Shown here: one piece after another, positions 2 to 23,681 of the stretch
Layout: each line of letters starts with the position of its first letter
Numbering within the stretch: position 1 is the first letter of the stretch
Origin: a virus
Virus record (IMG/VR): IMGVR_UViG_3300028653_000022
Span: 1 to 50,109 of that record
Strand: one strand, 5' to 3'
Length of the DNA stretch: 50,109 nucleotides
Translations under genes and position numbers: made by a program
Notes under the pieces: model-generated
Told to the model about the DNA's origin: nothing
Seen by the model: the letters and a program-made list of their open reading frames with translations, nothing else
Databases searched by the model: none

Positions 2-3000
2 CTTAATCCGTATGTTAAGGATACTGCGTGGCTGCGGAACTTCCGAGCGAATGCTGCGGTTGGAGATTTCTCTACGATCGATCTGCGCCCGCTTGATAAG
101 TTAGCTGTCGCTTCTCCCGATCTTCCCGATGTGGTCTTCGCTCCGAAAGACTGGAAGAATCCAACTACCAGTGGATTCACCATCTGGGAAATGAAGGCTG
201 TTCCTGGGGCTGCTGAGAAGATGCCAAAGTTCCAGATGGTTGACGAGGCTTCAAGCTTGGGCGAGCTTCAGTCGAAGCTAGCGGATAAGGCAGCGATGAG
301 ATACGACGGGCTTACTGCGGTGAACAAAGCTGATAGCATGACCTTGAGTAAGGACTTGGTTCTTCAGGGCAAGCTTCAGCAGCTTAATTCAAAGACCTAC
401 GATCCATTTCCTGAAGAGGTAAGCAAAGGTTTCATCAGACCTAAGCTTCGAGGATATCTCTCACCAACCGAGGCTCAAGACGCAGCGTACGCGGCGATCG
501 GAAACGGAGGGAATGCCTTTCATGTCAAGCTCGATGAGACTCCACAGATGGTTAGAAAGATCGCAGCGAACGAGAGCTTCTTAACCGACGGCGCTCCGTT
601 GACGCTCGTTCCGACTAGCCCTGAGAACGCGAATGCGCTCGCGATCATCTCGAATCCGGCGACGCCTGAAGCTCTCACCGCCGCGCAAGCTTTCGCCGAC
701 AAGGCTGTCGCTGCCAACTCTGGCTGGACAGCAGATACTGCTCGGGCGCACTATCTCGTTCAGAATGGATACGATGGCATATTCGATCCGGATACTGGGA
801 CGATTCAATCGTTCTTCCCTTCAAGGATGAAGTGGATTACGGATCAATTCGATTCAGCTACAGGAAAGCTTCTTCCTAGTACGAAAGCGAGACTCATGGC
901 TTCAGGGCCCTTGGGTACGAAGGTTTCGATTCAAGCAAAGATCGCTACGGTCCTCGGAAAAGACTCTCTCGCAGCGAGCCCTACGACGCTTGCAAATGTA
1001 GCTATGTCGAAGTTTAAGGGAGAGCTGAAAGACCCGGATGTGAAGAACTTCGTCACTCAGATCGTAGACGCTAAGGGAGTCGCGCATACGGATATCTCGA
1101 TTCAGCGCGGTCTTCTCGAAGATAGCGGGATTGTGAAAAATCCTGACGGCTCATTGACGGTGAAGATTCCCGATAACATCGCAAGCTTCCAGGATCAGAA
1201 GACCTTTGTCACGAAGCTTCTTAAAGGAATGGACGACCTAGGTACGGGGAAGATAGACAAGCTCGCTAAGATAGCTCGAACGAAGGCGATCAACAGCGCT
1301 CCGTCGAAGTTCACGCTTCCATTCGAGAGCGAAAGCGCGAACCATGCGTGGCTTCAGTCGGTGGCTAAGAGCGAGTTCTCAGGTGTTGATCTTATTCGAA
1401 ATACTGACGGAGGCTACTCGCTTCAAGACAAGGCGTATAAGACTATTGGAACCTTCGACACGCTCGCCGAGGCTCGAGACGCTATGCTCATGTCGAGCTT
1501 AAGCGAGAGCTTTCTTAAAGGCGATCTCTATCGTCAGGGCTATCGTCTCTCAGGAGATAAGAAGGTTGGATATACGCTCGGAGGGCCTGGGCTCGCCCAT
1601 CCCATTCACGGGGATTCGATTCAAGACGTAATCAAGACTATTGATTATAAGCCTTCGACCATTTCCAATAGGCTCGCACCGAGAGACATCGATATCACTC
1701 CAGGCACGACGAGGGTCACGTTCGATGGAAACAAGGTCGTAGCTTCGAGGCAAGAGGTGGCGCAAGCTTTAGATAAGTTCGAGAATCCTGACGAGCTTGC
1801 GAAGATGGTTGGTGTTGCCAAGCTCCATGCTGGAGATATCTATAAGGTCGCTGATGACTATGTTCGAGTGGATGTCCCAGGCTTAGGAGTTACTAGGTAT
1901 TTCAATACAGTAAGTGAAGCGAAGGCTTTCCTCGAGACTGATTTCAATTCGATGTCAGCGCTCAAGAGTGCAGCCAACCGAAAGGGAATCTCGATCTATC
2001 ACGATTATAACACCGGAGGGTATATTCTCGGCGATGGAGAGAAAGTCTTAAACGCCAAGAACGCGAGCGAAGTGCAGACGATCTTGAAAAGCTATCCAGA
2101 CACTCCAGGGGCGAGGGAGATTCTTTCTGCTCTCGATCCTCAAGCGGATGAAGCGGTGAAACAAGCGATTGAGCTAGTCGATCGAGACATGATGCGAGAG
2201 TGGAAGACGGGAGACTTCGGCGAGACTGCCGTTCGCTGGGATGCGAGCATTCTCGATGAGAAGCCAAGCGTCACTTCTCGAGGCTTGGGTAAGATGAGTC
2301 TACTCGGACAGGGAAGAGAGCATTTCGGAAGCTACGATCGATATACTGAAACAACGGTTAATCGAGAGCTGAAACTCACGGAACTTGGAAAGCTGCGAGA
2401 TATGTCTAGCCGTCAAGCCCAAGCGATGTATCAACAGCTAGACGATGATATTCGGCTTCATGAAGCTATCTTCACCGATGAGAAAGGGCGAGAGATGAAG
2501 GTTGATCGCAGACAAGCGATCGCAGCGTACATTGAAGCTGAAGGCATTCCTGAGTCTTTACCTGAGACGAAAGCCAAGTTCGGCGAGCTGTCTACGCATG
2601 AAGAAAGCGTTATGCAGCGAGTGAAAGACTTGTTTAAGGAATACGCTAAGAGATTCGGCGTCGACCCTTCGACATATATCAAGGGATATATGTCTCACAT
2701 TCGAGCCAGCATTCTTGCTGATCCGAACATTGCCACTTGGGCGATCGATGCCGATGATGTTCTTGGCAATACCTATCATGGACTCGAGAATGCTCCAAAG
2801 CCGCTACGAGCGTTCTTTCATCACGAGAGAGCAGAAGCGCTTCTCGACGCTTCGATGGAGTCTGACCCGTTAGCTATTCTCAATAGGTATGTCACTCAAG
2901 GGAATAAGGAGTTCTTCCTTCGTCAGCCTATTCAGGATACTCTTGATTACTTCAGAAGGAACGGAGGTAACATTCCCTCTGACGTAATCGAGCACACGTT

Positions 3001-4246
3001 GTATGACATTCAATCGATGGCGAACGGGCATAAGATGCAAGGATTTCAGGAAGCTCAATCGATGCTTGACTCCTTTCATGCAGCGCTATCTAAGATGCCT
3101 GGAGTCAATAAGTTTATCAAAGACACTCCAGGAGGAAGCGCAAAGCTTCTTCAAGGCTGGATCAATCTCACGTACTTGGGAAAGGTAGCTTTCCGCCCTT
3201 GGCTCGCAGCGAGAAATATCATTCAAGTGGAGCAGACGCTAGGATGTCGGATAGGATTCGAGCCTACGAACGCGGCGCTCAAGCAAGTCTTAGGCGAAGG
3301 CAGAGAGGAGCTGATGCTCAGGCTTCGCAAGCAAGGTTTGCTTCTACGTGATACTCCTGCTGCCGCGGACCTAGGTCAGAGTCGACTCTCTAAGCTCACG
3401 CGAGCGGGAATGAACGGGATATATGCGGCGGATGATATCGCTCGAGCTGTCTCATGCGTGGCCGCGGAGAACCTTCTTCAGGAAGGCGTGGACACATGGA
3501 ATCGTGGCGCGTTCGAAAGGATTTCTCGAAACACTCCGAAAGGCGCGATTGAGAAGTTCAAGGACTTCACCGAGCTTAGGCAGATTTCCGCAGGGAAGCC
3601 GGAGCTGGCCGATCAGATCGCAGAGCTAGCTTTATCCGGCAAGAGTGAAGAGCTAGCCCAAGCGAAGAAGCTCTTTGCTCAAGAACTCTCGAACCAGACT
3701 AACCCGAACTTCGCTCGATTCCAGCAGCCTCATTTCTATACCGCCTCGCTTCCGGGATACCTCTTCGGTCGTCTCTCAACCTTTACTACGATGTCGAGGG
3801 AGAACATTTTCCGAGGCTGGCAAGCTTCGCAAGGCATTGCGAATAAAGCCCTCTTCATCGGAAGATACGTAGGCTTAGGACTCGCGCTTAAGAAAGGCAT
3901 GGAAGCCATAGGCATAGACGGTAAGGACTTCTCCCCGGGGTATAGTGCTCTCTTTGGTGGTGGTCCGCAGTTCTCCGAAGCGATCGACCTCGCTCGCTCA
4001 GCCGGAAGCGGAACGACGAACTCGAACGCTCGCGAGACGATAGAGAAAGCCTATCTTCCTTTCTACTTCGATGAGTCTCAAGGTAAGCTTCAAGGAAACC
4101 TTAGTCTCGGGAATCCTGAACACCTTCCTGGGTCGATCCCTGGGACATTGCAGTTGCATTATGCTCATCAGATGGCTTTGGCGCTCGAGAGGGACGACTA
4201 CTGGAAGGCTTTCCTTTGCGGCTTGACGATACCCGTGAAGAAGTAG
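2..4246 (+). CDS. Giant internal virion/ejection protein, C-terminal part (5' end outside window)
   Basis: The reading frame is open from base 2 (no stop before the first possible start at 131), so this is the 3' part of a larger gene; 1414 codons are visible. By position, next to the ejection-type genes at the right edge, and by its size and helical Ala/Lys/Glu-rich composition, it is probably the T7 gp16-like ejection protein that enters the host with the DNA. I see no lytic transglycosylase motif here. At roughly residues 245-275 of the visible part, a segment around GYDGIFDPDTG then FFPSRMKWI resembles the C-terminal signature of ADP-ribosyltransferase-like domains of phage polyvalent proteins. 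This is weak, because the other ART motifs are not obvious. The last 146 bases overlap the convergent gene ending at 4101. Structural role likely; enzymatic role uncertain. Confidence 0.75.
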   Translation, partial: LNPYVKDTAWLRNFRANAAVGDFSTIDLRPLDKLAVASPDLPDVVFAPKDWKNPTTSGFTIWEMKAVPGAAEKMPKFQMVDEASSLGELQSKLADKAAMRYDGLTAVNKADSMTLSKDLVLQGKLQQLNSKTYDPFPEEVSKGFIRPKLRGYLSPTEAQDAAYAAIGNGGNAFHVKLDETPQMVRKIAANESFLTDGAPLTLVPTSPENANALAIISNPATPEALTAAQAFADKAVAANSGWTADTARAHYLVQNGYDGIFDPDTGTIQSFFPSRMKWITDQFDSATGKLLPSTKARLMASGPLGTKVSIQAKIATVLGKDSLAASPTTLANVAMSKFKGELKDPDVKNFVTQIVDAKGVAHTDISIQRGLLEDSGIVKNPDGSLTVKIPDNIASFQDQKTFVTKLLKGMDDLGTGKIDKLAKIARTKAINSAPSKFTLPFESESANHAWLQSVAKSEFSGVDLIRNTDGGYSLQDKAYKTIGTFDTLAEARDAMLMSSLSESFLKGDLYRQGYRLSGDKKVGYTLGGPGLAHPIHGDSIQDVIKTIDYKPSTISNRLAPRDIDITPGTTRVTFDGNKVVASRQEVAQALDKFENPDELAKMVGVAKLHAGDIYKVADDYVRVDVPGLGVTRYFNTVSEAKAFLETDFNSMSALKSAANRKGISIYHDYNTGGYILGDGEKVLNAKNASEVQTILKSYPDTPGAREILSALDPQADEAVKQAIELVDRDMMREWKTGDFGETAVRWDASILDEKPSVTSRGLGKMSLLGQGREHFGSYDRYTETTVNRELKLTELGKLRDMSSRQAQAMYQQLDDDIRLHEAIFTDEKGREMKVDRRQAIAAYIEAEGIPESLPETKAKFGELSTHEESVMQRVKDLFKEYAKRFGVDPSTYIKGYMSHIRASILADPNIATWAIDADDVLGNTYHGLENAPKPLRAFFHHERAEALLDASMESDPLAILNRYVTQGNKEFFLRQPIQDTLDYFRRNGGNIPSDVIEHTLYDIQSMANGHKMQGFQEAQSMLDSFHAALSKMPGVNKFIKDTPGGSAKLLQGWINLTYLGKVAFRPWLAARNIIQVEQTLGCRIGFEPTNAALKQVLGEGREELMLRLRKQGLLLRDTPAAADLGQSRLSKLTRAGMNGIYAADDIARAVSCVAAENLLQEGVDTWNRGAFERISRNTPKGAIEKFKDFTELRQISAGKPELADQIAELALSGKSEELAQAKKLFAQELSNQTNPNFARFQQPHFYTASLPGYLFGRLSTFTTMSRENIFRGWQASQGIANKALFIGRYVGLGLALKKGMEAIGIDGKDFSPGYSALFGGGPQFSEAIDLARSAGSGTTNSNARETIEKAYLPFYFDESQGKLQGNLSLGNPEHLPGSIPGTLQLHYAHQMALALERDDYWKAFLCGLTIPVKK

Positions 4247-4835
4247 CGATCGCTTTCACTCTTCGAACGAACTGCTCGACCGAAGCTATAGGTACGATCA
4301 CCTCGTAGGCTGGATCAAGAAACTCGACCGTTCCACGGACGTTCGCTCTCTCGGAGTACCGATCAATCTCGTATTTATACTCGAGCAGTCTTTTGGAATT
4401 GAACTCGTTCCCTTCGATGTCGATGAGTGTAAGCTCGAGCTTACGAAGGTCGGGCAAGGTCTTTAGCATATCAGAAACAATCTTTCTTCTCCGATAGAAG
4501 TAGCACTTCACCGTGTCGCAGCTCACGCCTGCGAGCTTAGCCAAGCCCTGAATGCTACTAGGTAGATTCTTGTCATGCGCGTGATCCTTGTGCCAAACGG
4601 CGAACTTTGAGTAGATACTTAAGGGATTGTACGAGGCCTTATCGGGAAGAACTGCCATGTGAGTTTGAGCTACTCCTGAGCGTTTAAGGATAGTCACCAC
4701 GGTATCTTTGGAAATACCGCACGCCTTCGCAGCTTTGCGAAGACTTCCGAAATGCTGATAGGCTGCGATTACTTTCTCGATCTTCAACCCATGTCGTACC
4801 GTCTTCAGTTCGTGCCTGTCGTACTCATCGCTCAT
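4101..4835 (-). CDS. Double helix-turn-helix protein of the replication operon
   Basis: A 244-residue protein starting at the ATG that overlaps the helicase stop (TGATG) with AAGGAG upstream. Two helix-turn-helix-like segments are visible: GSLRKAAKACGISKDTVV at about residues 30-48 and GLAKLAGVSCDTVKCYFYRR at about 96-115. It is therefore probably a DNA-binding protein, either a transcription regulator or an origin/primase accessory factor. The C-terminal 60 residues are low-complexity, Ser/Arg/Lys-rich and probably disordered. The final 49 codons are antisense to the end of the convergent virion gene. It is the last gene of the minus-strand unit. No known family is recognised beyond the HTH segments. 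Confidence 0.7.
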   Translation of the reverse strand: MSDEYDRHELKTVRHGLKIEKVIAAYQHFGSLRKAAKACGISKDTVVTILKRSGVAQTHMAVLPDKASYNPLSIYSKFAVWHKDHAHDKNLPSSIQGLAKLAGVSCDTVKCYFYRRRKIVSDMLKTLPDLRKLELTLIDIEGNEFNSKRLLEYKYEIDRYSERANVRGTVEFLDPAYEVIVPIASVEQFVRRVKAIATSSRVSSSRKGKPSSSRPSRAPKPSDEHNATAMSQGSTQEGVQDSRD

Positions 4836-6283
4836 CAGATTTCTCCTTCTGCCTTCGCGCCCAGCCATCTCTCGCCGCACCATTTATATATCTCTTTCGT
4901 GTTCGAACTTGGATATGTTCGCAAGGTTTGGCTCAAGTATATTTCTATCTTTCCTTCTTCGCTAAGAAGCGTCAATCCCTCTCTAAGCTCGGCGGCGGTG
5001 AACTTTCCTTGTCGTAGAAGCGTCATTCGAGTGATGTCGGGATGAGAGCGAACGTATTCCTCAAGCCTTCCGATGAATGGTTTCACATCCTGCTCGAATC
5101 CTCGCACCATTGGAAGAGATTCAAACCATGTCTTCTTAATTAACATGAGAGCTGATTTTACATCCTGAAGGCTTATTATCTTATCTCTTGAATCGTATCT
5201 CTGTATTCGAAGTAGAAACGCAATCTTAAGAACTAGCACCGTAAATCGACTTTTCATGCCTTGATATTGAGTGTCTTCTTCCAGCTCGTCTGCCCATTTA
5301 TTATACCACTTGTCATAGAACTTATCGGCTTCGGGAGAAAGGTCGTACTCTCCAACTGTTACTTGAGCTATCCAAGCTAGTCTCTTCGCTAGCTCATCGT
5401 TATCTGGCGAGCCGTCGACTATCCTTGGTCTTGAGAACCTTCTCCCGCAGCGAGTGGGACAGTAGACTAAGACTGTGCGAGAGAGGAAGCCGTCGCTTCT
5501 CATTCCTTCGCCGATAGATGCGCGAAAACCTTGAAGCGTCGTTCCAGCGAGCATCGTCGTATGTAGATTCTTTAGTATCATTACTTCTTTAGCTTTACGA
5601 TAGGTAAATGGCTGATCGCAATCGTAGAAGGCAAGAAGGTTATCAGACAAGCCTACGTTGTACTTCTGCATTCCAGCGAACGTAGCGAACTCGTGCGCGA
5701 TGATAGCGGCTTCAGCAGTTTTCGAGTACCAGAGTTTTCTTCCTGTCTTCGGATTGATTATTGGCTCGTTATTTTTATCTCTAAAGAAGAAGCCTTTGCT
5801 TCCTCGAGGTTCCTTATACTTAGGATTGAGTGCATCGATGAGCCCTTCCGGAGTAGCCTTGTCTGCGACGACATTTATATATTTTATTAACCTCATATTA
5901 GGGTCTTCGATAAGCTTCTGAAACGTAGTAAGAAGCGTCGTCGCGTCGTTGATAGCCTCGGTCTTATGCGCGATGCCCGCAGGGCCGACAAGGACACAGT
6001 AGAAGTTTGACCATAGCTTTTTCGGCCCAAACCTTACCCACGCTTCGCGCTTGACTGCGGAAGAGAGAACGAAAAGCGTCGACCAGATAGTGAAAAGCGT
6101 CGTGACTTCCTTGCCTCGATGGCGAAAGACGCAATCAGTGATGAAGCCTTTGTCTTTCGGCAAGACCTCATCACCTGGGTCGTCACACCAGAACTTATCT
6201 CCAGCTGCCAATTCATCGAATGGAATTGGAGCTTCGGGGTCTCGCGTTTGCTTTGGCGTTCTTACTAGCTTTCCACTCTTCAT
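4835..6283 (-). CDS. DUF3987-like P-loop protein, candidate replicative helicase
   Basis: A 482-residue protein. The segment VLVGPAGIAHKTEAI (about residues 97-111) resembles the irregular P-loop of DUF3987-type phage helicase/primase-associated ATPases (typically GPP.x.RKSTAI), with Lys-Thr retained. A later LAGTTLQGF-type segment and helical C-terminus fit a RecA-like ATPase followed by a winged-helix-like tail. It lies directly downstream of the DNA polymerase catalytic gene, overlapping its last 71 bases, and is coupled to the next gene by TGATG, so it belongs to the replication operon. No other helicase is visible in the window, which supports the assignment. The motif is degenerate, so helicase activity is an inference. 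Confidence 0.55.
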   Translation of the reverse strand: MKSGKLVRTPKQTRDPEAPIPFDELAAGDKFWCDDPGDEVLPKDKGFITDCVFRHRGKEVTTLFTIWSTLFVLSSAVKREAWVRFGPKKLWSNFYCVLVGPAGIAHKTEAINDATTLLTTFQKLIEDPNMRLIKYINVVADKATPEGLIDALNPKYKEPRGSKGFFFRDKNNEPIINPKTGRKLWYSKTAEAAIIAHEFATFAGMQKYNVGLSDNLLAFYDCDQPFTYRKAKEVMILKNLHTTMLAGTTLQGFRASIGEGMRSDGFLSRTVLVYCPTRCGRRFSRPRIVDGSPDNDELAKRLAWIAQVTVGEYDLSPEADKFYDKWYNKWADELEEDTQYQGMKSRFTVLVLKIAFLLRIQRYDSRDKIISLQDVKSALMLIKKTWFESLPMVRGFEQDVKPFIGRLEEYVRSHPDITRMTLLRQGKFTAAELREGLTLLSEEGKIEIYLSQTLRTYPSSNTKEIYKWCGERWLGAKAEGEI

Positions 6284-7046
6284 AGCTTTTCATTTCTCCC
6301 CATGAGGTTAGCGACACTTCTATGTCAGCTGGAAAGATCACATCTCTATTCCACAGATGCCGAGGCTTTTCCATTATTCTTTTTAGCGTCTTAGCGCAGA
6401 GGTCGATGTCAGCTATTGGGCATTCGATTACATTAGAATCGTGAACGGTGGCGACGAGTCTCCAGTTTACGTGCTTTTTACATTCGTCATACAGCTCGAT
6501 TAAGCTTTCATTTTCGATATCTCCCGCTGTGCCTTGAATGGGAGTATTGATTCCTTCTCTCTCTATCTCTTCGTTCGTGCCTAAGAAGAAGCGCTTTCTT
6601 CCCGTTGCCGTGACGCATGTTCTCGTATCTCTGGCAGTCGAGGCAGCTTTCTTGAATCCTCGATCAAGACCCGGATGGGCTTCGAAGTATTTTCTATCGG
6701 CTGTTCTGAATTGGGCCATAGTAAAGTTAAGCTCGGGAACGTCAGCTGATACACGTTCGTATATACCACGGATACCTCCTCCATAGCTTCGGCCGAAGAC
6801 GAAGACCTTTGCAGCTCTTCGGATAGTTTTCCAACTAGGATGTTTCTCGTCTATTCCAAACATGACTTTTGTATTCTCATCATGAATGTTCTTTCCTTGT
6901 TCGAACATTTTTTGCAGCGGAATATCCTCGAACTCATAAGCCATGACTCTAAGCTCAAGGTTCGAGAAGTCTCCAGCTACGAAGGCACAGAGCGCTTCAG
7001 GAACGAAGACGCTCTTTGCCTCGCTTGGAAGGTTTTGCCAATTCAA
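6213..7046 (-). CDS. DNA polymerase A, C-terminal catalytic part of a split polymerase
   Basis: A 277-residue protein carrying the palm/fingers motifs of family A polymerases. Motif A is AGDFSNLELRVMAYE (Asp26), the motif B/O-helix is RRAAKVFVFGRSYGG (Lys80, Phe84, Tyr88), and motif C is LVATVHDSNVIE (His202, Asp203; Ser replaces the usual Glu). It starts at NWQNLPS, which in an intact PolA directly follows the GRLSS segment. That segment is the end of the gene at 8735-10561, so the two proteins together make one polymerase. The start is a TTG overlapping the previous stop (TTGA), with GGGAG seven bases upstream, so it is set up for independent translation. It should form the active enzyme with the UDG-exonuclease part. 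Confidence 0.9.
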   Translation of the reverse strand: MNWQNLPSEAKSVFVPEALCAFVAGDFSNLELRVMAYEFEDIPLQKMFEQGKNIHDENTKVMFGIDEKHPSWKTIRRAAKVFVFGRSYGGGIRGIYERVSADVPELNFTMAQFRTADRKYFEAHPGLDRGFKKAASTARDTRTCVTATGRKRFFLGTNEEIEREGINTPIQGTAGDIENESLIELYDECKKHVNWRLVATVHDSNVIECPIADIDLCAKTLKRIMEKPRHLWNRDVIFPADIEVSLTSWGEMKSYEEWKASKNAKANARPRSSNSIR

Positions 7047-7780
7047 TCTTTCTCTCCCTTAGCCTTAGCCAGCGCGGCGCGGGCGATGTCTCCGCAGTCT
7101 CGCAGCGTGTGTCTTAAAAGTCTTTCCGTGCTTCCCATCTTAAAGCCACCGGCTTCCAGCTTGTCTACATTCATAAGCTCGCCGAATGAGTCCTGATAGT
7201 AGTGGATAGCTTTCTGTTGCTCTTTAGCAGCTATTGCCTCGAGCGCCGCCCGCAATCCCTTGACCAGACCCTCAGCTTCATTTCGCTTGCGTGTTACTGT
7301 TTGGCATTCCCGCTTCCGTGCGTCAATTTCGAGGCGAGCTAAATGCAAGTCTGCCTCGGCGGATTCGGCGCGGGCTTGCGCGTAGCGCTCTATCGCGGCG
7401 GCGGCGGCGGTTATCGCCGCTGTATAATTCTGGGCTGACCACCTTCCAACGAAAGGCATCGGAATTATGTTTTCCGCCAGCTCCCGCGCATCCTTCTCTG
7501 GGGTCGGCTGGCGGGAGGCTAGGAGTGCGGCGATCGCACCTTTGGGAATTATCGCTAGTTGCGACCATTGCTCGCATCGGTGATCTTGCTCGACAAATCC
7601 GCATCCTTCGGAGCACCAATAACGATCCTCTCCGCTCTCCGCTTTGGGCCTGGCCTCGAGGTTGAGGATGGCGAGGGCCTGGTTGATCCTCAGCGCGGCG
7701 TCGTCTATCTGCAAAACATTAAGCCAGTGGTTTGCGTTGATAAGGTTGTCCCGTGCGATGTCGATCTGCTTTTGCGTCAT
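7043..7780 (-). CDS. Cassette protein of unknown function, coiled-coil and Ala-rich
   Basis: A 245-residue protein starting at MTQKQIDIARDN. That ATG has GGAGG six bases upstream and overlaps the previous stop (ATGA), so longer starts were not used. A Cys pair and His (YWCSEGC.. then DHRCEQW) near residues 58-72 may bind metal. A long Ala/Glu/Arg-rich helical region follows. The overall look recalls Ea22/ead-type accessory proteins of phages, but no family is established. The gene is richer in G+C, with GCG/GCC codons, than its neighbours, and is the last gene of the five-gene cassette that splits the polymerase. Its TGA overlaps the TTG of the polymerase catalytic part. Confidence 0.65.
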   Translation of the reverse strand: MTQKQIDIARDNLINANHWLNVLQIDDAALRINQALAILNLEARPKAESGEDRYWCSEGCGFVEQDHRCEQWSQLAIIPKGAIAALLASRQPTPEKDARELAENIIPMPFVGRWSAQNYTAAITAAAAAIERYAQARAESAEADLHLARLEIDARKRECQTVTRKRNEAEGLVKGLRAALEAIAAKEQQKAIHYYQDSFGELMNVDKLEAGGFKMGSTERLLRHTLRDCGDIARAALAKAKGEKD

Positions 7781-7902
7781 ATCTGCCTCCATACAAGACA
7801 AAAAGCCTCGAAGTATATCGTCAAGTCCTCTCCGCGCTTGCCGGCCGCAGAGCATCCCCACACAATAGCGCGTAGCACGGTGTCCCGATCATGCTCGCTC
7901 AT
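7777..7902 (-). CDS. Small cassette protein (41 aa)
   Basis: A 41-residue protein, MSEHDRDTVLRAIVW at the start and CLVWRQI at the end. The ATG has AGGAG five to ten bases upstream and overlaps the stop of the previous gene (ATGA); its own stop overlaps the next ATG in the same way. The tight coupling on both sides is the main support that it is translated. No function recognised. Confidence 0.6.
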   Translation of the reverse strand: MSEHDRDTVLRAIVWGCSAAGKRGEDLTIYFEAFCLVWRQI

Positions 7903-8111
7903 GGTTTTCTCCTTTCGGCGAGCATCGCGTCGGCCTGGTCGTAAGCCCAGTGTGCCAGTTTTTCGGACGAAACTTCTCCAATGTTGGGATGCGCACTCAT
8001 TCCCGCGAGCGCCTGCCCGGCGAAGTAGTCGCGAAGGGACATGCCCCCTGACATGGCACTCTCCACAGTCCAAACGGGGAATGCATTCGGCCCATCATCA
8101 CGCTCGTTCAT
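7899..8111 (-). CDS. Small phage/prophage-type protein with a GGMSLRDYFAGQAL motif
   Basis: A 70-residue protein beginning MNERDDGPNAFPV, chosen because the ATG follows a GGGGGG stretch and overlaps the preceding stop (ATGA). The segment GGMSLRDYFAGQALAG followed by a C-terminal AYDQADAMLAER helix is one I recognise from small uncharacterised proteins common in proteobacterial phages and prophages. Function unknown. It is the best hint that the cassette came from a different phage lineage. Confidence 0.7.
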   Translation of the reverse strand: MNERDDGPNAFPVWTVESAMSGGMSLRDYFAGQALAGMSAHPNIGEVSSEKLAHWAYDQADAMLAERRKP

Positions 8112-8287
8112 ATTCCCCCCCTTGGATCGTCCATCGTTCTTCGCAAGCCGAAGACTTGCCCTACATTCGTGCATGGATGTTTCTTAGTAAACTCAGGATC
8201 GACCGCGATGAAGCGAGGACCGGAAAAGAATCGCTTGATTCTTTCGAGTAAGGATAGCTCTCGCTTAGCGTAATACTGATGTTTCAT
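8108..8287 (-). CDS. Small basic cassette protein (59 aa)
   Basis: A 59-residue protein starting MKHQYYAKRELSLLERIKRF, with AAGGAGG upstream and ATGA overlap with the preceding membrane-protein gene. Its stop overlaps the next ATG. The N-terminal half is basic and helical. No family recognised; support is coupling and ribosome site. Confidence 0.55.
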   Translation of the reverse strand: MKHQYYAKRELSLLERIKRFFSGPRFIAVDPEFTKKHPCTNVGQVFGLRRTMDDPRGGI

Positions 8288-8724
8288 TTCCTTTCCCTCC
8301 TTACAACTCTTTTCCACCAGTGATGCTGATATCCTATTTCGTAAATGCCTACGATTACTCCCCATAGACCCAATCCTATTGCAGCATACTCAATTTGGAT
8401 GTTTGGATCAGATATAGTTTGGCCTGTCTCAGGTATTGATCGCCCAGTGGTTAAGCTCACGTCAAGATTTGATCCTATATGTATGATGTTAGTAAGATGT
8501 GGATATGCATACGCACCTATTAATGTTCCAACCAATGCGCCAACTACTCCAGACACAACTGATCCTTCGCTGTAAAGAAGGAACAGTTTCATTGAGTGAT
8601 TGAACTTAACGTCATCGTCATATCTTAATTGATTATTAAACGTGAATCCTTTAGAGACTGAGAGCTGCGCCCATAATGATTGGAGGAATATTGAAACTAG
8701 AACGATAACCAAGAGCTTACGCAT
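8284..8724 (-). CDS. Small membrane protein, first gene of the polymerase-splitting cassette
   Basis: A 146-residue protein with a signal-peptide-like start (MRKLLVIVLVSIFLQSLWAQ) and two further hydrophobic segments near residues 55-75 and 112-132, ending in a basic tail (KRVVRRERK). It starts ten bases after the stop of the polymerase N-terminal gene, with GGAGG in the gap. It is AT-richer than the genes that follow it, so the cassette itself is mosaic. The role is not clear; possibilities are superinfection exclusion or lysis control, neither supported by a motif. Confidence 0.65.
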   Translation of the reverse strand: MRKLLVIVLVSIFLQSLWAQLSVSKGFTFNNQLRYDDDVKFNHSMKLFLLYSEGSVVSGVVGALVGTLIGAYAYPHLTNIIHIGSNLDVSLTTGRSIPETGQTISDPNIQIEYAAIGLGLWGVIVGIYEIGYQHHWWKRVVRRERK

Positions 8725-8734
8725 CGTTTCCTCC

Positions 8735-10561
8735 TTAATCGTTTCCAGATGATAGCCTTCCAGTGGCTGTTCCGTGAATCTTGAACAGTGGATGCACTCT
8801 CCCGTCTGGCCCGATGTCGAAATCTGTATAGGTGGAGAGCATCTTTGCCGTCTTCTGTCTCTTCTGAAATAGCATTAAAGCCAAGCGGAGAAGCTCAAGA
8901 TCGGCGAGCCTTTTCTTATGCTCCGCTGTTGGTTTTCGAAACTTAGAAATCAACTCGTACTCAGTGTTTGCAGCAAGACGAGAGAGAAGCAAAGCTTTCT
9001 CATCCTTCGAGTAACCAGTCTTGTTTCTCTTTACCATCGACTTCGATCGAGGTAGAGGTCTTACTTGATCGTAAATGTCGACCTTAGTTTTAAGCTCGGC
9101 ATATTTCTTCGTGTTCTTTTTCTTCTTCGATCCCTCAACGTCATATTCTGAAAGCTCATTTATCCAAGCTTCAAGGTTCTTCGGCCCTTCACCGTAGAAC
9201 CAATAGCTCAAGTGATGCGGAGATTGAAGGTTGAAAGATTCAGGAAGATTGCCGATCGTTCTTAGCTGAGATTCAAGCGTAGCTAGCTCAAGCTCAAGCT
9301 CTCTCTTCCAAGCGTTAAGCCTTCCTCTATCTAGCTTCATCCCGTTGTAGGTCAGCTCGAGCGTAGGACGAATGAGCTTGAGCGAATAGTCGTAGTAAAT
9401 ATGCTCGGTTCCAGTTTCTTTCAAGTCCTGAAGAAGCGGTTTCAAGACTTGATGTAAAACGACTGAGTCGCGACAGTTATAGGTCCGAAGGTCAATGTCC
9501 GGTGTTTGGCACATTCGTGAAAACTTGAGCTTAACATCCTTCCAGAATGGCGTGGCTCCATAGATGGATACAATATACCCAAGATTATGCGGCAGCTCCG
9601 GATGGATAGCGTGATGTATAAGCAGTACATCGTGTTCGATCCTTCCAATCTTAAAACCATTGGATTCTAATACGCTCACGTCGAACGGAGCGTTCTGATA
9701 CATCGTAGGGCATTTCTCAAGTATCTCGTAAAGACAGTTTTTCACTCGGATTAAGTCTCCGTTCTTCCAATACGGGATGAAGCCTTGAGAGTAGAATGGA
9801 ATCGAGAAAGCTTCTTCGGAAGACAAGGCTAAGCTCATAGTAAAGACTTCTGCTTCGTAATAGGTGAGAGCTGTCGTTTCCGTGTCTACTCCAAGCAAGG
9901 GCTTTCGCTTGAGGATGTCCTTCGTCCTTGCTTCGATATCTCGAACAGTTGGGAAAAGTAGAAAGTCTTCTTTCGGAGGAGTATATCCTTCGGTTGCGAT
10001 CGAGATTGCTTTATTAATATCATTGATACAGGTTGGCTCTTCTGACCACTGTCCGCGAATGATGTAGCTTGGATGAAACGTAGGGACTACCCAGAAGTCT
10101 TTCCCCGCGACCGTCGCTTTATATACCGAGCCTCGAATCTTATGTATCGCACCTTCAATTCCAAGTGCGCTTGAAGGCTTATTTCCTAGCGTAATTAACG
10201 TCCGCACTCCCTTCGCATGAAGCTCAAGCAGTTCTTGCTCAAGCCCAGGACGACACATCTCTAGGGCTTCAACTCCTTCGCTTGAATCAAGGTCATTCTC
10301 CGGAGGTCGGCAGTTGATTAGATTGAGCACATATACATTGTGACGATGGATACCGGCCTTGGCAAGCATCCGGTCAAGCTCCTGGCCTGCGGAGCCTACG
10401 AAGGGGCGACCTTTCTCATCTTCATCCTTCCCTGGAGCTTCTCCGATGAGCGCTAGCTTAGGCTTATCACTAGCGCTCTCGCCGCGTACCTTAGTGCAAT
10501 ACCCGGCGAGAGCGCATTCGGAGCATTTACTTTTCGTTCTTGTGATTCGATACGTTGTCAC
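8735..10561 (-). CDS. Uracil-DNA glycosylase (family 4) fused to PolA 3'-5' exonuclease, N-terminal part of a split polymerase
   Basis: A 608-residue protein. Residues 1-175 are a family-4 UDG: Fe-S cysteines 13, 16, 84 and 103, the motif GEAPGKDEDEKGRPFVG at 40-56 and HPS at 163-165. From about 220 a DnaQ-like proofreading domain follows with DTET (226-229), YQNAPFD and YNCRDS as Exo I-III. Thumb and early palm then run to ATGRLSSGND, where the protein stops just before motif A. UDG-PolA fusion is known from phage SPO1. The start is a GTG overlapping the preceding stop (GTGA) with GGAGA upstream. The catalytic remainder is encoded at 6213-7046. It should excise or sense uracil at the replication fork, proofread, and bind the second polymerase subunit. 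Confidence 0.9.
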   Translation of the reverse strand: MTTYRITRTKSKCSECALAGYCTKVRGESASDKPKLALIGEAPGKDEDEKGRPFVGSAGQELDRMLAKAGIHRHNVYVLNLINCRPPENDLDSSEGVEALEMCRPGLEQELLELHAKGVRTLITLGNKPSSALGIEGAIHKIRGSVYKATVAGKDFWVVPTFHPSYIIRGQWSEEPTCINDINKAISIATEGYTPPKEDFLLFPTVRDIEARTKDILKRKPLLGVDTETTALTYYEAEVFTMSLALSSEEAFSIPFYSQGFIPYWKNGDLIRVKNCLYEILEKCPTMYQNAPFDVSVLESNGFKIGRIEHDVLLIHHAIHPELPHNLGYIVSIYGATPFWKDVKLKFSRMCQTPDIDLRTYNCRDSVVLHQVLKPLLQDLKETGTEHIYYDYSLKLIRPTLELTYNGMKLDRGRLNAWKRELELELATLESQLRTIGNLPESFNLQSPHHLSYWFYGEGPKNLEAWINELSEYDVEGSKKKKNTKKYAELKTKVDIYDQVRPLPRSKSMVKRNKTGYSKDEKALLLSRLAANTEYELISKFRKPTAEHKKRLADLELLRLALMLFQKRQKTAKMLSTYTDFDIGPDGRVHPLFKIHGTATGRLSSGND

Positions 10562-12805: not shown

Positions 12806-13069
12806 TTAGTCTCTGAACCTAGTGTCTAGGGCCTTCGTCGTTGGTGAAACGTCTGTCCATATAATGAACGCTACATAGCTTTCTTCAAGCTTCGAGTTTT
12901 CTATGCTCGTTATGCTTCCGGGAGTCCTTCCTGCTGAGCTTCCTATTCCAGCGTAGTAGAGGTTTCGCTGAAACTTTATCGACTGATAACCGTAAACCGC
13001 TATGAAGCTTTCTACCACATCGATGAAGTCTTGCTTATTTGGCTGCTCGATTATTTTAAGATGCGTCAT
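12806..13069 (-). CDS. Hypothetical 87-aa protein
   Basis: The protein starts MTHLKIIEQPNKQDF at the ATG overlapping the stop of the radical-SAM gene (ATGA). It shows an alpha/beta pattern with a Gly/Ser-rich turn (GIGSSAGRTPGS) near the middle. No family recognised. Coupling to the radical-SAM gene suggests the two work together. Confidence 0.6.
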   Translation of the reverse strand: MTHLKIIEQPNKQDFIDVVESFIAVYGYQSIKFQRNLYYAGIGSSAGRTPGSITSIENSKLEESYVAFIIWTDVSPTTKALDTRFRD

Positions 13070-14013
13070 TCGAGATCCCAATTTATCCCAGACCAGTGAG
13101 GATCGAGGGAATAGAAGGTTTGCGAATGATCGGAATGCACGTAGACTTTCCGATCATCTCCATGCCTGAACTGAACGATGCCCTTTGTTCCGGTAAGGAC
13201 GTAGGCTGAAGAGCAGAGCTTGCATGGCTCGTTTTCAGGATATCCTTTCGTCATTTCTTTTCTTCGTTCCATGATCGTTTCCCAAGAATCCTTGTTCACG
13301 TTTCCAAGAACGTACTTGCTCCGGTCTGGCGTTCGTTCGCAGAGAAGCACGTCTCCGTTGAAAAGGACGACAGGATTTCCCTCGAGAAGTGAGTGGCATT
13401 TCTGCGGAAGCGCAACGTAGGTTGGAGAGTTGAACTTGCTTCCGTATTCGAAATACCTTGAGCGAAGAACGAAGTCCACTTTCGTATTGAATAGCCAGAG
13501 CTTGACGAACTTCTCGAACTCAATCTCGCTCTGCCCGTTATCTACCCAGCGTACGGCGATCCAAGGAGTCTTCCGATCTCCTCGAAGCTCGAGAGCTGTA
13601 TGCACGAACTCTTGAGCTTGCTCGAGAGGGATGAGCCCGCGTCTCATAGCATAGGAATGAAGACAGAGCCCATCCATTGAGACGATGTAAACGTAGCACG
13701 CGGTATCGGGCTCGACGAGCAAAGGAATGAGACTCTTCCCGACGAAGCCTGAAACGGGAATGGATACGCGAAGCTTAAGCTCCTTCATTCGCTGCATGAA
13801 GTGAGCGAAGTTCTTGTGGTTCATAGAATCGCCGTGGAACTGTGGAAGGATCATCGTTCCTTCGGGAATGTTTCGATTGGCATTCTCGAATGTCTCGTTA
13901 TCCATATCTCCATCGAAGGGACCGTCAACGAAGCTCCGAAAACATCCGACGCATTTTGCATAGCATCGAGCGCTCCATTCCTGCACGACGTACAACGGCT
14001 TAAACTTTTCCAT
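13066..14013 (-). CDS. Radical SAM protein with SPASM-like C-terminal cysteines
   Basis: A 315-residue protein. CYAKCVGC (Cys17, Cys21, Cys24) is the CX3CX2C radical-SAM cluster motif, at the end of an initial strand. The C-terminal third contains CERTP, then GNVNKDSWETIMERRKE and CKLCSSAYV, the typical layout of a SPASM/twitch auxiliary cluster region. Such proteins generate a 5'-deoxyadenosyl radical to modify peptides, RNA or small molecules; the substrate is unknown. It starts at an ATG with AAGGAG upstream and is followed immediately by an 87-aa gene that could encode a partner or substrate. Radical SAM enzymes are uncommon in podoviruses of this size. Confidence 0.85.
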   Translation of the reverse strand: MEKFKPLYVVQEWSARCYAKCVGCFRSFVDGPFDGDMDNETFENANRNIPEGTMILPQFHGDSMNHKNFAHFMQRMKELKLRVSIPVSGFVGKSLIPLLVEPDTACYVYIVSMDGLCLHSYAMRRGLIPLEQAQEFVHTALELRGDRKTPWIAVRWVDNGQSEIEFEKFVKLWLFNTKVDFVLRSRYFEYGSKFNSPTYVALPQKCHSLLEGNPVVLFNGDVLLCERTPDRSKYVLGNVNKDSWETIMERRKEMTKGYPENEPCKLCSSAYVLTGTKGIVQFRHGDDRKVYVHSDHSQTFYSLDPHWSGINWDLE

Positions 14014-22918: not shown

Positions 22919-23681
22919 AATCTAGCTCCTTTGCTGATGGCTATAATGATCCCGCTATGCGGGATTTAGAGACGATTTAGAGACTACTTGAGAAAAGAGA
23001 CTGTCCCTAGGCTGATGTTTAGATACTATCTAGTGATTAAATTGAGCGATATATGTAAAAGCTAGCGTGAAGGCTAGCTAGAATGTGAAGGCGAGAGTGA
23101 AGCGAGCGAAGTTTTTAAGCTAAGGTCTAAGCGAATAGCAAGAAGCGAAGGCGAGAATGATTTACGATCGAGACTGACGGCCAATTGCATAGCTGCGAGC
23201 TCGAAGCCGGGTGATGAAAGGTCAATGCTAGGCATTGAATACCCCCAAAGGATAGAGACTGGAGACTGGAGACTGAAGAGCTTAGGCGCTCTATTCTCGC
23301 GCCTATGGCCTACCTTTCACCGATAGGCCTAAGCGCGAGCTTAGAGAGTCTAAGGCTTGACGGCTTGAATTACCACTATGGAACGGCTTTGGAGAATCTG
23401 TAGGTGGCGTTTTCCACCTACTACCACTCGAGTGATAGTGCCGACTGGTAGACCTAGCTACGGCATGGTTGTACGCCGAAGACGCTAGCTACAATACTGG
23501 TTTAGGATACAACCCTTGCCAGCTTATTTCAAAGAACCGCAATCATATCCGCTAGATATGCGACTGGTAGTGAATTAGGCCGCGCCGTCACTACCAACTA
23601 GCTACGATTGCGCATCGATCGGGCTTGTAACCGATCCGCCGCATTGATAGCAAGGCGCAAGGCCTTGCTATTACTCTGCGA
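22919..23681 (-). ncRNA. Candidate large structured non-coding RNA
   Basis: A 763-base gap without a convincing frame, in a genome where most genes overlap. It contains many perfect stems: ATAGCAAGGC/GCCTTGCTAT (23647-23671), CGCAATC/GATTGCG closing a branch (23538-23612) over GGTAGTGA/TCACTACC (23566-23595) and CATATC/GATATG, the pairing of GGCA..GGTTGTA with TACAACC.TGCC (23462-23520) around a TTCG tetraloop, GTAGGTGG/CCACCTAC (23400-23421), and TAGGCGC/GCGCCTA near 23283-23306. A GGAGACT triplication lies near 23257-23277. Strand is assigned from the flanking genes. Size and setting recall GOLLD/ROOL-type ornate RNAs of phages, but I cannot confirm a family. Confidence 0.55.

What the first reader, a model, noticed from the sequence alone, without database searches (positions are those of the whole stretch)
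6213..10561. DNA polymerase A split exactly before motif A by a five-gene cassette
Seen: one gene ends ATGRLSSGND and stops; 1.7 kb later another starts NWQNLPS and continues through motifs A, B and C. Joined, the segment reads as an intact PolA, with neither gap nor duplication relative to the usual GRLSS.(3 residues).NLQN(I/L)P spacing. Both pieces have their own start and ribosome site, and the inserted genes are chained by ATGA overlaps. Inferred: a two-subunit polymerase made by clean insertion at a conserved site.
Basis: partly seen in the sequence, partly recalled or inferred. Interest (0 to 1): 0.85.

Follow-up and report, generated by a model that had tools for sequence, protein, structure and literature searches.

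The report
Phage DNA polymerase in two pieces
In a small group of uncultured phages the gene for the DNA-copying enzyme is broken at one fixed spot into two genes, and almost every phage carries something different in the gap (homing endonucleases, a methyltransferase, unknown genes); the break is older than the five genes seen here and lies at a spot where a known self-spreading DNA element sits in another phage, so the five genes moved into a break that was already there.

Summary
A UDG-exonuclease-PolA gene stops after GRLSSGND (8735). Five ORFs chained by ATGA overlaps follow (1,688 nt, only 10 nt non-coding). A second gene starts at NWQNLPS (7046) and carries motifs A, B and C. The C piece corresponds to Klenow residues 675-928, so the break lies just before Asn675, about 24 residues before the motif A aspartate.

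The interpretation needs correcting. Five related viral contigs (65-77% identity) are broken at the same codon, but with other contents: nothing, a 111-aa ORF, a methyltransferase, an HNH-AP2 endonuclease, an HNH endonuclease. Unsplit relatives lie outside this clade. The split is therefore older than the five-gene cassette. A distant relative (L049) was split independently at the same codon and also carries an HNH gene. The site coincides with the SPO1 polA intron site, home of the HNH nicking enzyme I-HmuI. Both pieces are under purifying selection, no record has another recognised replicative polymerase, and there is no room for an intron.

Best reading: a two-polypeptide PolA created at a homing-endonuclease site, which now serves as a cargo slot. 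Split phage polymerases are known (Aeromonas phage gp43A/B; MEP401 PolA), so this is a new variant of a known kind.

The parts
8735..10561 (-). N piece of the DNA polymerase (608 aa, GTG start): family 4-like UDG domain (10010-10468), DnaQ-like 3'-5' exonuclease, thumb, ends at TGRLSS + GND
   Evidence: model pLDDT 87.5; Foldseek top hits family 4 UDG and Klenow
8747..8764 (-). TGRLSS motif, last conserved polymerase residues of the N piece (the S before the tail aligns with Klenow Ser671, numbering from own knowledge)
8738..8746 (-). GND tail: not conserved in length or sequence among split relatives; probably not homologous to the SNP/RDP of unsplit polymerases
8730..8734 (-). GGAGG Shine-Dalgarno-like site for the first cassette gene
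8284..8724 (-). cassette gene 1, 146 aa, signal/membrane-like with weak glycine-zipper similarity, GC 40%
   Evidence: no phage homologue
8108..8287 (-). cassette gene 2, 59 aa, no known family
7899..8111 (-). cassette gene 3, 70 aa, phrog_2201-like small phage protein of unknown function, GC 58%
7777..7902 (-). cassette gene 4, 41 aa, no convincing family
7043..7780 (-). cassette gene 5, 245 aa, coiled-coil-like, no family; its stop overlaps the C-piece start (TTGA)
7054..7058 (-). GGGAG Shine-Dalgarno-like site for the C piece, inside cassette gene 5
6213..7046 (-). C piece of the DNA polymerase (277 aa, TTG start): palm and fingers, equals Klenow 675-928; motif A Asp at 6969-6971, motif C Asp at 6438-6440
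   Evidence: model pLDDT 92; VIA Z 23-25 to PolA structures
4835..6283 (-). DUF3987 primase/helicase-like gene overlapping the C piece; this junction never holds cargo in relatives

Best explanation
This is a family A DNA polymerase encoded as two separately translated polypeptides. The N piece carries UDG, exonuclease, thumb and the TGRLSS strand. The C piece carries the rest of the palm, the fingers and all three catalytic motifs, starting at the equivalent of Klenow Asn675. The two most likely assemble non-covalently into one working replicase (inferred). The break arose once in the common ancestor of six related phages, and again independently in a distant lineage, at the DNA site used by HNH homing endonucleases of the I-HmuI kind. 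The likeliest founder is a free-standing HNH gene, with its own Shine-Dalgarno leader, inserted directly upstream of the AAC-GCN-CAR codons without a splicing ribozyme (inferred). Afterwards the slot was emptied or refilled by other genes. The five-gene cassette in this window is such later cargo. Shown: the split, its age relative to the cassette, the turnover of cargo, selection on both pieces, the lack of intron space. Inferred: assembly in trans, the founding event.
For: Same break in L002, L007, L008, L011 and L091 with unrelated contents: none, 111-aa ORF, methyltransferase (phrog_24333, 8.7e-49), HNH_3+AP2 (1.6e-11), HNH_3 (5.4e-14). Outgroups L012, L013 and vir526 unsplit. Tree: six split members form one clade (SH-aLRT 100) inside unsplit ones; L049 is separate, AU p 0.0001 against one clade. 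Purifying selection on both pieces: dN/dS 0.079 (N) and 0.075 (C) for L007-L011, the one close pair; most other pairs are saturated at synonymous sites, with pN 0.13-0.27. No other PolA, PolB or PolC gene in any of seven records, with controls ringing. Inserts have 0-10 non-coding nt. C-piece model equals Klenow 675-928. SPO1 intron plus HNH gene sits at the same codon, exon 2 AACGCTCAGCAA; AACGCTCAG identical in L008 and L091 (PMC2814812 places it at Asn675/Leu676). HNH_3 genes at the break in three of seven split records. Cultured phages MEP401/402 replicate with a PolA split about 25 residues further on (PMC10580990).
Against: No HNH gene is left in this window, so its role here is by analogy with relatives. 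L049 is a long branch and its C piece has no clean start (FNAQ-stop-TVPEEL). The HNH proteins of L011 and L091 share only the HNH core and L091's is only weakly like SPO1's. L011 and L091 would need an ATA or alternative start for the C piece. No biochemical evidence of assembly. The exonuclease-polymerase operon also takes cargo at other junctions, so the split site is not the only slot.
Confidence: 0.72

Rival explanations
1. [quoted passage not shown]
For: Same codon as the SPO1 intron. In the window a cut GAT|TAAGG...GATTG|AAT would respect group I border rules and give GNDNWQN.
Against: Only 10, 1, 0, 0, 0 and 1 non-coding nt in the inserts, so no room for a ribozyme. Permissive Rfam search finds none in the inserts of window, L011, L091, L049, but does find the SPO1 intron (E 7e-4). 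L002 has a 1-nt gap and no insert. Rfam missed the putative JA-1 intron, so its silence alone is weak.
Confidence: 0.05
2. The gene first broke by ordinary mutation (stop plus new start) and the junction, now an intergenic site in an operon, later accepted HNH genes and other cargo; homing played no part in the break.
For: L002 is split without cargo. Other junctions of the operon also hold cargo. The same question is open for gp43A/B of T4-like phages (PMC2988022).
Against: The break lies at the known SPO1 HNH homing codon; a second lineage broke at the same codon with an HNH gene; HNH genes sit there in three of seven split records.
Confidence: 0.22
3. The polymerase is decaying and non-functional; replication relies on the host enzyme.
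For: Gene is interrupted; motif C reads HDS instead of HDE.
Against: Strong purifying selection on both pieces across six phages, all catalytic motifs kept. HDS also occurs in unsplit L012.
Confidence: 0.03
4. A fused polymerase is made at low level by ribosomal frameshifting or bypassing.
For: In L002 the frames differ by +1 at GAG TAA C.
Against: Inserts of 328-1,688 mostly coding nt in the other five, each cargo gene with its own start and most with Shine-Dalgarno-like sites.
Confidence: 0.03

Closest known systems
Split PolA of Methylophilales phages MEP401/MEP402 and MEP401-type viral genomes (PMC10580990)
   Same: Family A polymerase broken in the same ~40-residue stretch between TGRLSS and motif A; one small ORF between, no intron space; phages grow, so a two-piece PolA works
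   Different: Break about 25 residues later (SRYGE* / MILNADAK); no UDG; authors suspected an intron; no cargo turnover or HNH gene described
SPO1 gene 31 group I intron with HNH nicking endonuclease I-HmuI (and Bastille I-BasI)
   Same: Inserted at the same polA codon, exon 2 begins AACGCTCAG as in L008 and L091; HNH gene inside
   Different: Self-splicing intron restores one polypeptide; here no ribozyme and two polypeptides
gp43A/gp43B split PolB of Aeromonas T4-like phages 25 and 44RR (reviewed in PMC2988022)
   Same: Replicative polymerase in two genes that co-purify; different material at the same break in different phages
   Different: Family B polymerase, different site, seg endonuclease or untranslated spacer
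nrdA-a/nrdA-b of phage Aeh1 split by mobE ('genes in pieces', Friedrich et al. 2007, cited in PMC2988022)
   Same: Homing endonuclease insertion gives two chains that work together
   Different: Different enzyme; endonuclease still present
Vibrio phage JA-1 PolA split by HNH (PMC3670811)
   Same: HNH gene interrupts PolA near motif A
   Different: Break inside motif A with ~260 nt non-coding flank, so an intron is likely

Membership tests
Family A DNA polymerase (DNA_pol_A, PF00476) | Motifs A, B, C with catalytic aspartates; PolA palm/fingers fold | tested here: met
   (1.2e-37), alignment (invariant D26, R76, K80, H202-D203), (Z 23-25 to Klenow, Bst, Taq)
Family A DNA polymerase (DNA_pol_A, PF00476) | Both halves together cover the Klenow polymerase domain | tested here: met
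   phrog_17 positions 475-979 on the N piece and 981-1246 on the C piece
Phage 'gene in pieces' polymerase (gp43A/B-like, MEP401-like) | Two separate ORFs, own starts, intact motifs, unsplit homologues in relatives | tested here: met
Phage 'gene in pieces' polymerase (gp43A/B-like, MEP401-like) | Two chains co-purify and are active together | not testable with these tools
   needs co-expression
Group I intron-interrupted polA (SPO1 type) | Group I ribozyme core in the insert | tested here: not met
   no non-coding space; permissive Rfam searches empty with SPO1 as positive control
Group I intron-interrupted polA (SPO1 type) | Insertion at the Asn675 codon | tested here: met
   PMC2814812
Homing-endonuclease insertion | Endonuclease gene present at the break | tested here: not met
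   none in the window; present at the same break in L011, L091, L049
Homing-endonuclease insertion | Enzyme cuts the uninterrupted allele at this site | not testable with these tools
   needs in vitro cleavage of an unsplit polA
Split intein (trans-splicing) | Intein N and C blocks at the ends of the pieces | tested here: not met
   pieces end GRLSSGND* and begin MNWQNLP, no extra sequence

The most novel reading that the evidence does not exclude
The polA break is a stable cargo slot that selection keeps open: an obligate two-subunit family A replicase, split at the thumb-palm boundary, re-invented independently at the I-HmuI homing codon, with inserted genes that use the replication operon for expression and may act on the polymerase itself.
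Probability: 0.2. Interest if true: 0.8.

Novelty: new variant of a known kind. Interest (0 to 1): 0.6.

Why it matters
For split phage polymerases it has been unclear whether the mobile gene causes the break or invades a gene already broken (stated for gp43 in PMC2988022). Here six related phages share one break but carry six different states of the gap. That shows the break outlives its occupants and lets sequence alone separate the two steps. The site matches the SPO1 intron site, which links self-splicing introns, free-standing HNH genes and two-subunit polymerases at a single codon. It also points to a natural break between Klenow residues 671 and 675 for building split, switchable family A polymerases.

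Tried and rejected
Intron or ribozyme in the insert: rejected for lack of non-coding space and empty permissive Rfam searches. Rfam also missed the probable JA-1 intron, so coding density is the stronger argument. Split intein: no intein sequence. Sequencing error: the L002 split alone could be a GGGG homopolymer error (one G fewer would fuse the frames through GGTSNM-NAQN), but its other large ORFs in the 13.8 kb locus are open, and the other four relatives cannot be explained that way. Close homologues in bacterial and archaeal genomes: none found. Further split members by DNA pattern DTRAAYKSNCARAAYHTNCCNNNNGANGC in viral contigs: only the known ones, plus one unsplit polA (L098) and one chance hit. 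Homologues of cassette genes 1 and 5 in phages, the five split relatives, L012 and L049: none. PHROG N- and C-piece families first looked like split PolAs at this site; MEP401 and JA-1 members break elsewhere. Co-conversion between L007 and L011: identity by window is patchy but not peaked at the junction, so inconclusive.

Full report
WHAT IS THERE. The window is a 50,109-bp virus record. On the minus strand a 608-aa gene (10561-8735) carries a family 4-type uracil-DNA glycosylase domain, a 3'-5' exonuclease domain and the first part of a family A polymerase. It ends TGRLSSGND-stop. Five ORFs of 146, 59, 70, 41 and 245 aa follow, each overlapping the next by ATGA and each with a Shine-Dalgarno-like stretch. 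The last stop overlaps (TTGA) the start of a 277-aa gene (7046-6213) that begins NWQNLPS and holds motifs A, B and C. Of the 1,688 inserted nt, 10 are non-coding. The predicted C piece (pLDDT 92) aligns from its first residue with E. coli Klenow 675-928 and with Bst and Taq polymerases, Z 23-25. The N piece models well (87.5) except for its last 14 residues, the TGRLSS end. That would fit a strand that needs the other piece (inference).

THE SPLIT IS OLDER THAN THE CASSETTE. Scans of viral contigs gave five relatives at 65-77% identity: L002, L007, L008, L011, L091. All are broken at the same codon, with different contents. L002 has a single base between stop and start. L007 has one 111-aa ORF. 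L008 has one methyltransferase (phrog_24333, 8.7e-49). L011 has an HNH_3 + AP2 endonuclease. L091 has a different HNH_3 endonuclease. Non-coding bases in these gaps number 1, 0, 0, 0 and 1. Homologues at 35-40% identity (L012, L013, vir526) are unsplit, reading GRLSSRDPNMQNLP, GRLASKEPNLQNLP and GRLSCRAPNLMNL. A profile scan of about 90 loci found the other polymerases continuous here where the stretch is covered, apart from L049; several are split elsewhere, mostly at the exonuclease-polymerase boundary. In the tree the six form one starred clade inside unsplit sequences, with the window sister to the empty L002.

L002 carries a caveat. Removing one G from its GGGG run would fuse the frames, and the record may be an older one. 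Its other large ORFs are open, and the ATG directly before NAQN is a start codon that unsplit relatives lack. Even a fused reading would therefore point to a split ancestor, and the argument does not rest on L002 alone.

A SECOND ORIGIN AT THE SAME CODON. L049, about 25% identical, ends its N piece GRLSSGGEEGEGK-stop and resumes near FNAQ, with several ORFs between, the last an HNH_3 endonuclease. Placing it with the six is rejected (AU p 0.0001), with the warning that it is a long branch. HNH_3 genes are few in these genomes (six in seven records), and three of them lie exactly in the polA break.

WHY THIS CODON. The group I intron of Bacillus phage SPO1 polA, which encodes an HNH endonuclease of phrog_59, sits at the same place. 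A published mapping puts it between Asn675 and Leu676 of E. coli Pol I (PMC2814812). Reading the SPO1 record, exon 2 starts AACGCTCAGCAATTCCC (NAQQFP). The C pieces of L008 and L091 start with the identical AACGCTCAG after the start codon. L091's HNH has phrog_59 as its best family (2.5e-29), a family common in introns of Bastillevirinae polymerases (PMC11878797). I infer that this is an HNH homing target and that a free-standing endonuclease, without ribozyme, split the gene. The direct sequence similarity between the L091 and SPO1 enzymes is weak, and no HNH gene remains in the window.

FUNCTION. Both pieces are conserved. Between L007 and L011, the closest pair, dN/dS is 0.079 (N) and 0.075 (C); the few other pairs that can be estimated give 0.06-0.14, and the rest are saturated at synonymous sites. 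No second PolA, no PolB and no PolC gene was found in the seven records, while control genomes rang. Protein-primed PolB was not searched. Cultured phages MEP401 and MEP402 have a PolA broken about 25 residues further on (SRYGE-stop / MILNADAK) with one 77-aa ORF and no intron space (PMC10580990), so a family A polymerase in two pieces can support phage growth. Co-purification of the two parts of a split PolB is reported for Aeromonas phage 25 (PMC2988022). Assembly of the two pieces here is inferred, not shown.

CARGO. The window's cassette is mosaic: GC 40% for gene 1 and 55-58% for genes 3-5, against 46-47% for the polymerase pieces. Genes 1 and 5 have no homologue in phages, the five split relatives, L012 or L049; gene 3 belongs to a widespread small phage protein family. 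Cargo also enters other junctions of the operon (Sak4-SSB, upstream of the N piece), but never the overlap between the C piece and the DUF3987 gene in the split clade.

VERDICT. Observation confirmed; interpretation partly supported. It is a new variant of a known kind, phage replication genes in pieces, with unusually clear evidence on the order of events and a match to a known homing site.

Noticed in passing
23619-23680 (-): Type P5 twister ribozyme above Rfam's gathering score (47 bits, E 9e-7).
   Followed up: no
L011 2911, L091 8263: In the two members with HNH cargo the C piece would start at ATA overlapping the HNH stop (ATAA); L091 has an upstream in-frame GTG (8239), L011 only a later TTG (2926).
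   Followed up: partly
L032, L037, L039, L064, L066, L072, L083: Other UDG-PolA loci are split at the exonuclease-polymerase boundary (profile position ~375-388), some with 0.2-3.5 kb between.
   Followed up: partly
L049 9047-9110: The C piece of L049 reads FNAQ-TAG-TVPEELRHLWIP: an in-frame TAG right where N678 is expected; start of the C piece unclear.
   Followed up: partly
6438-6440 (-) and relatives: Motif C reads HDS (HDQ in vir526) instead of the usual HDE, also in unsplit L012, so it is a lineage trait unrelated to the split.
   Followed up: partly
13066-14013 (-): 315-aa protein with a cysteine cluster (CYAKCVGC, CKLC) that resembles a radical-SAM-like protein; no PHROG hit.
   Followed up: no
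131-4246 (+) and 4101-4883 (-): A 1371-aa ORF without PHROG hit runs convergently into the replication operon; in L002 a similar large ORF lies at the same place.
   Followed up: no
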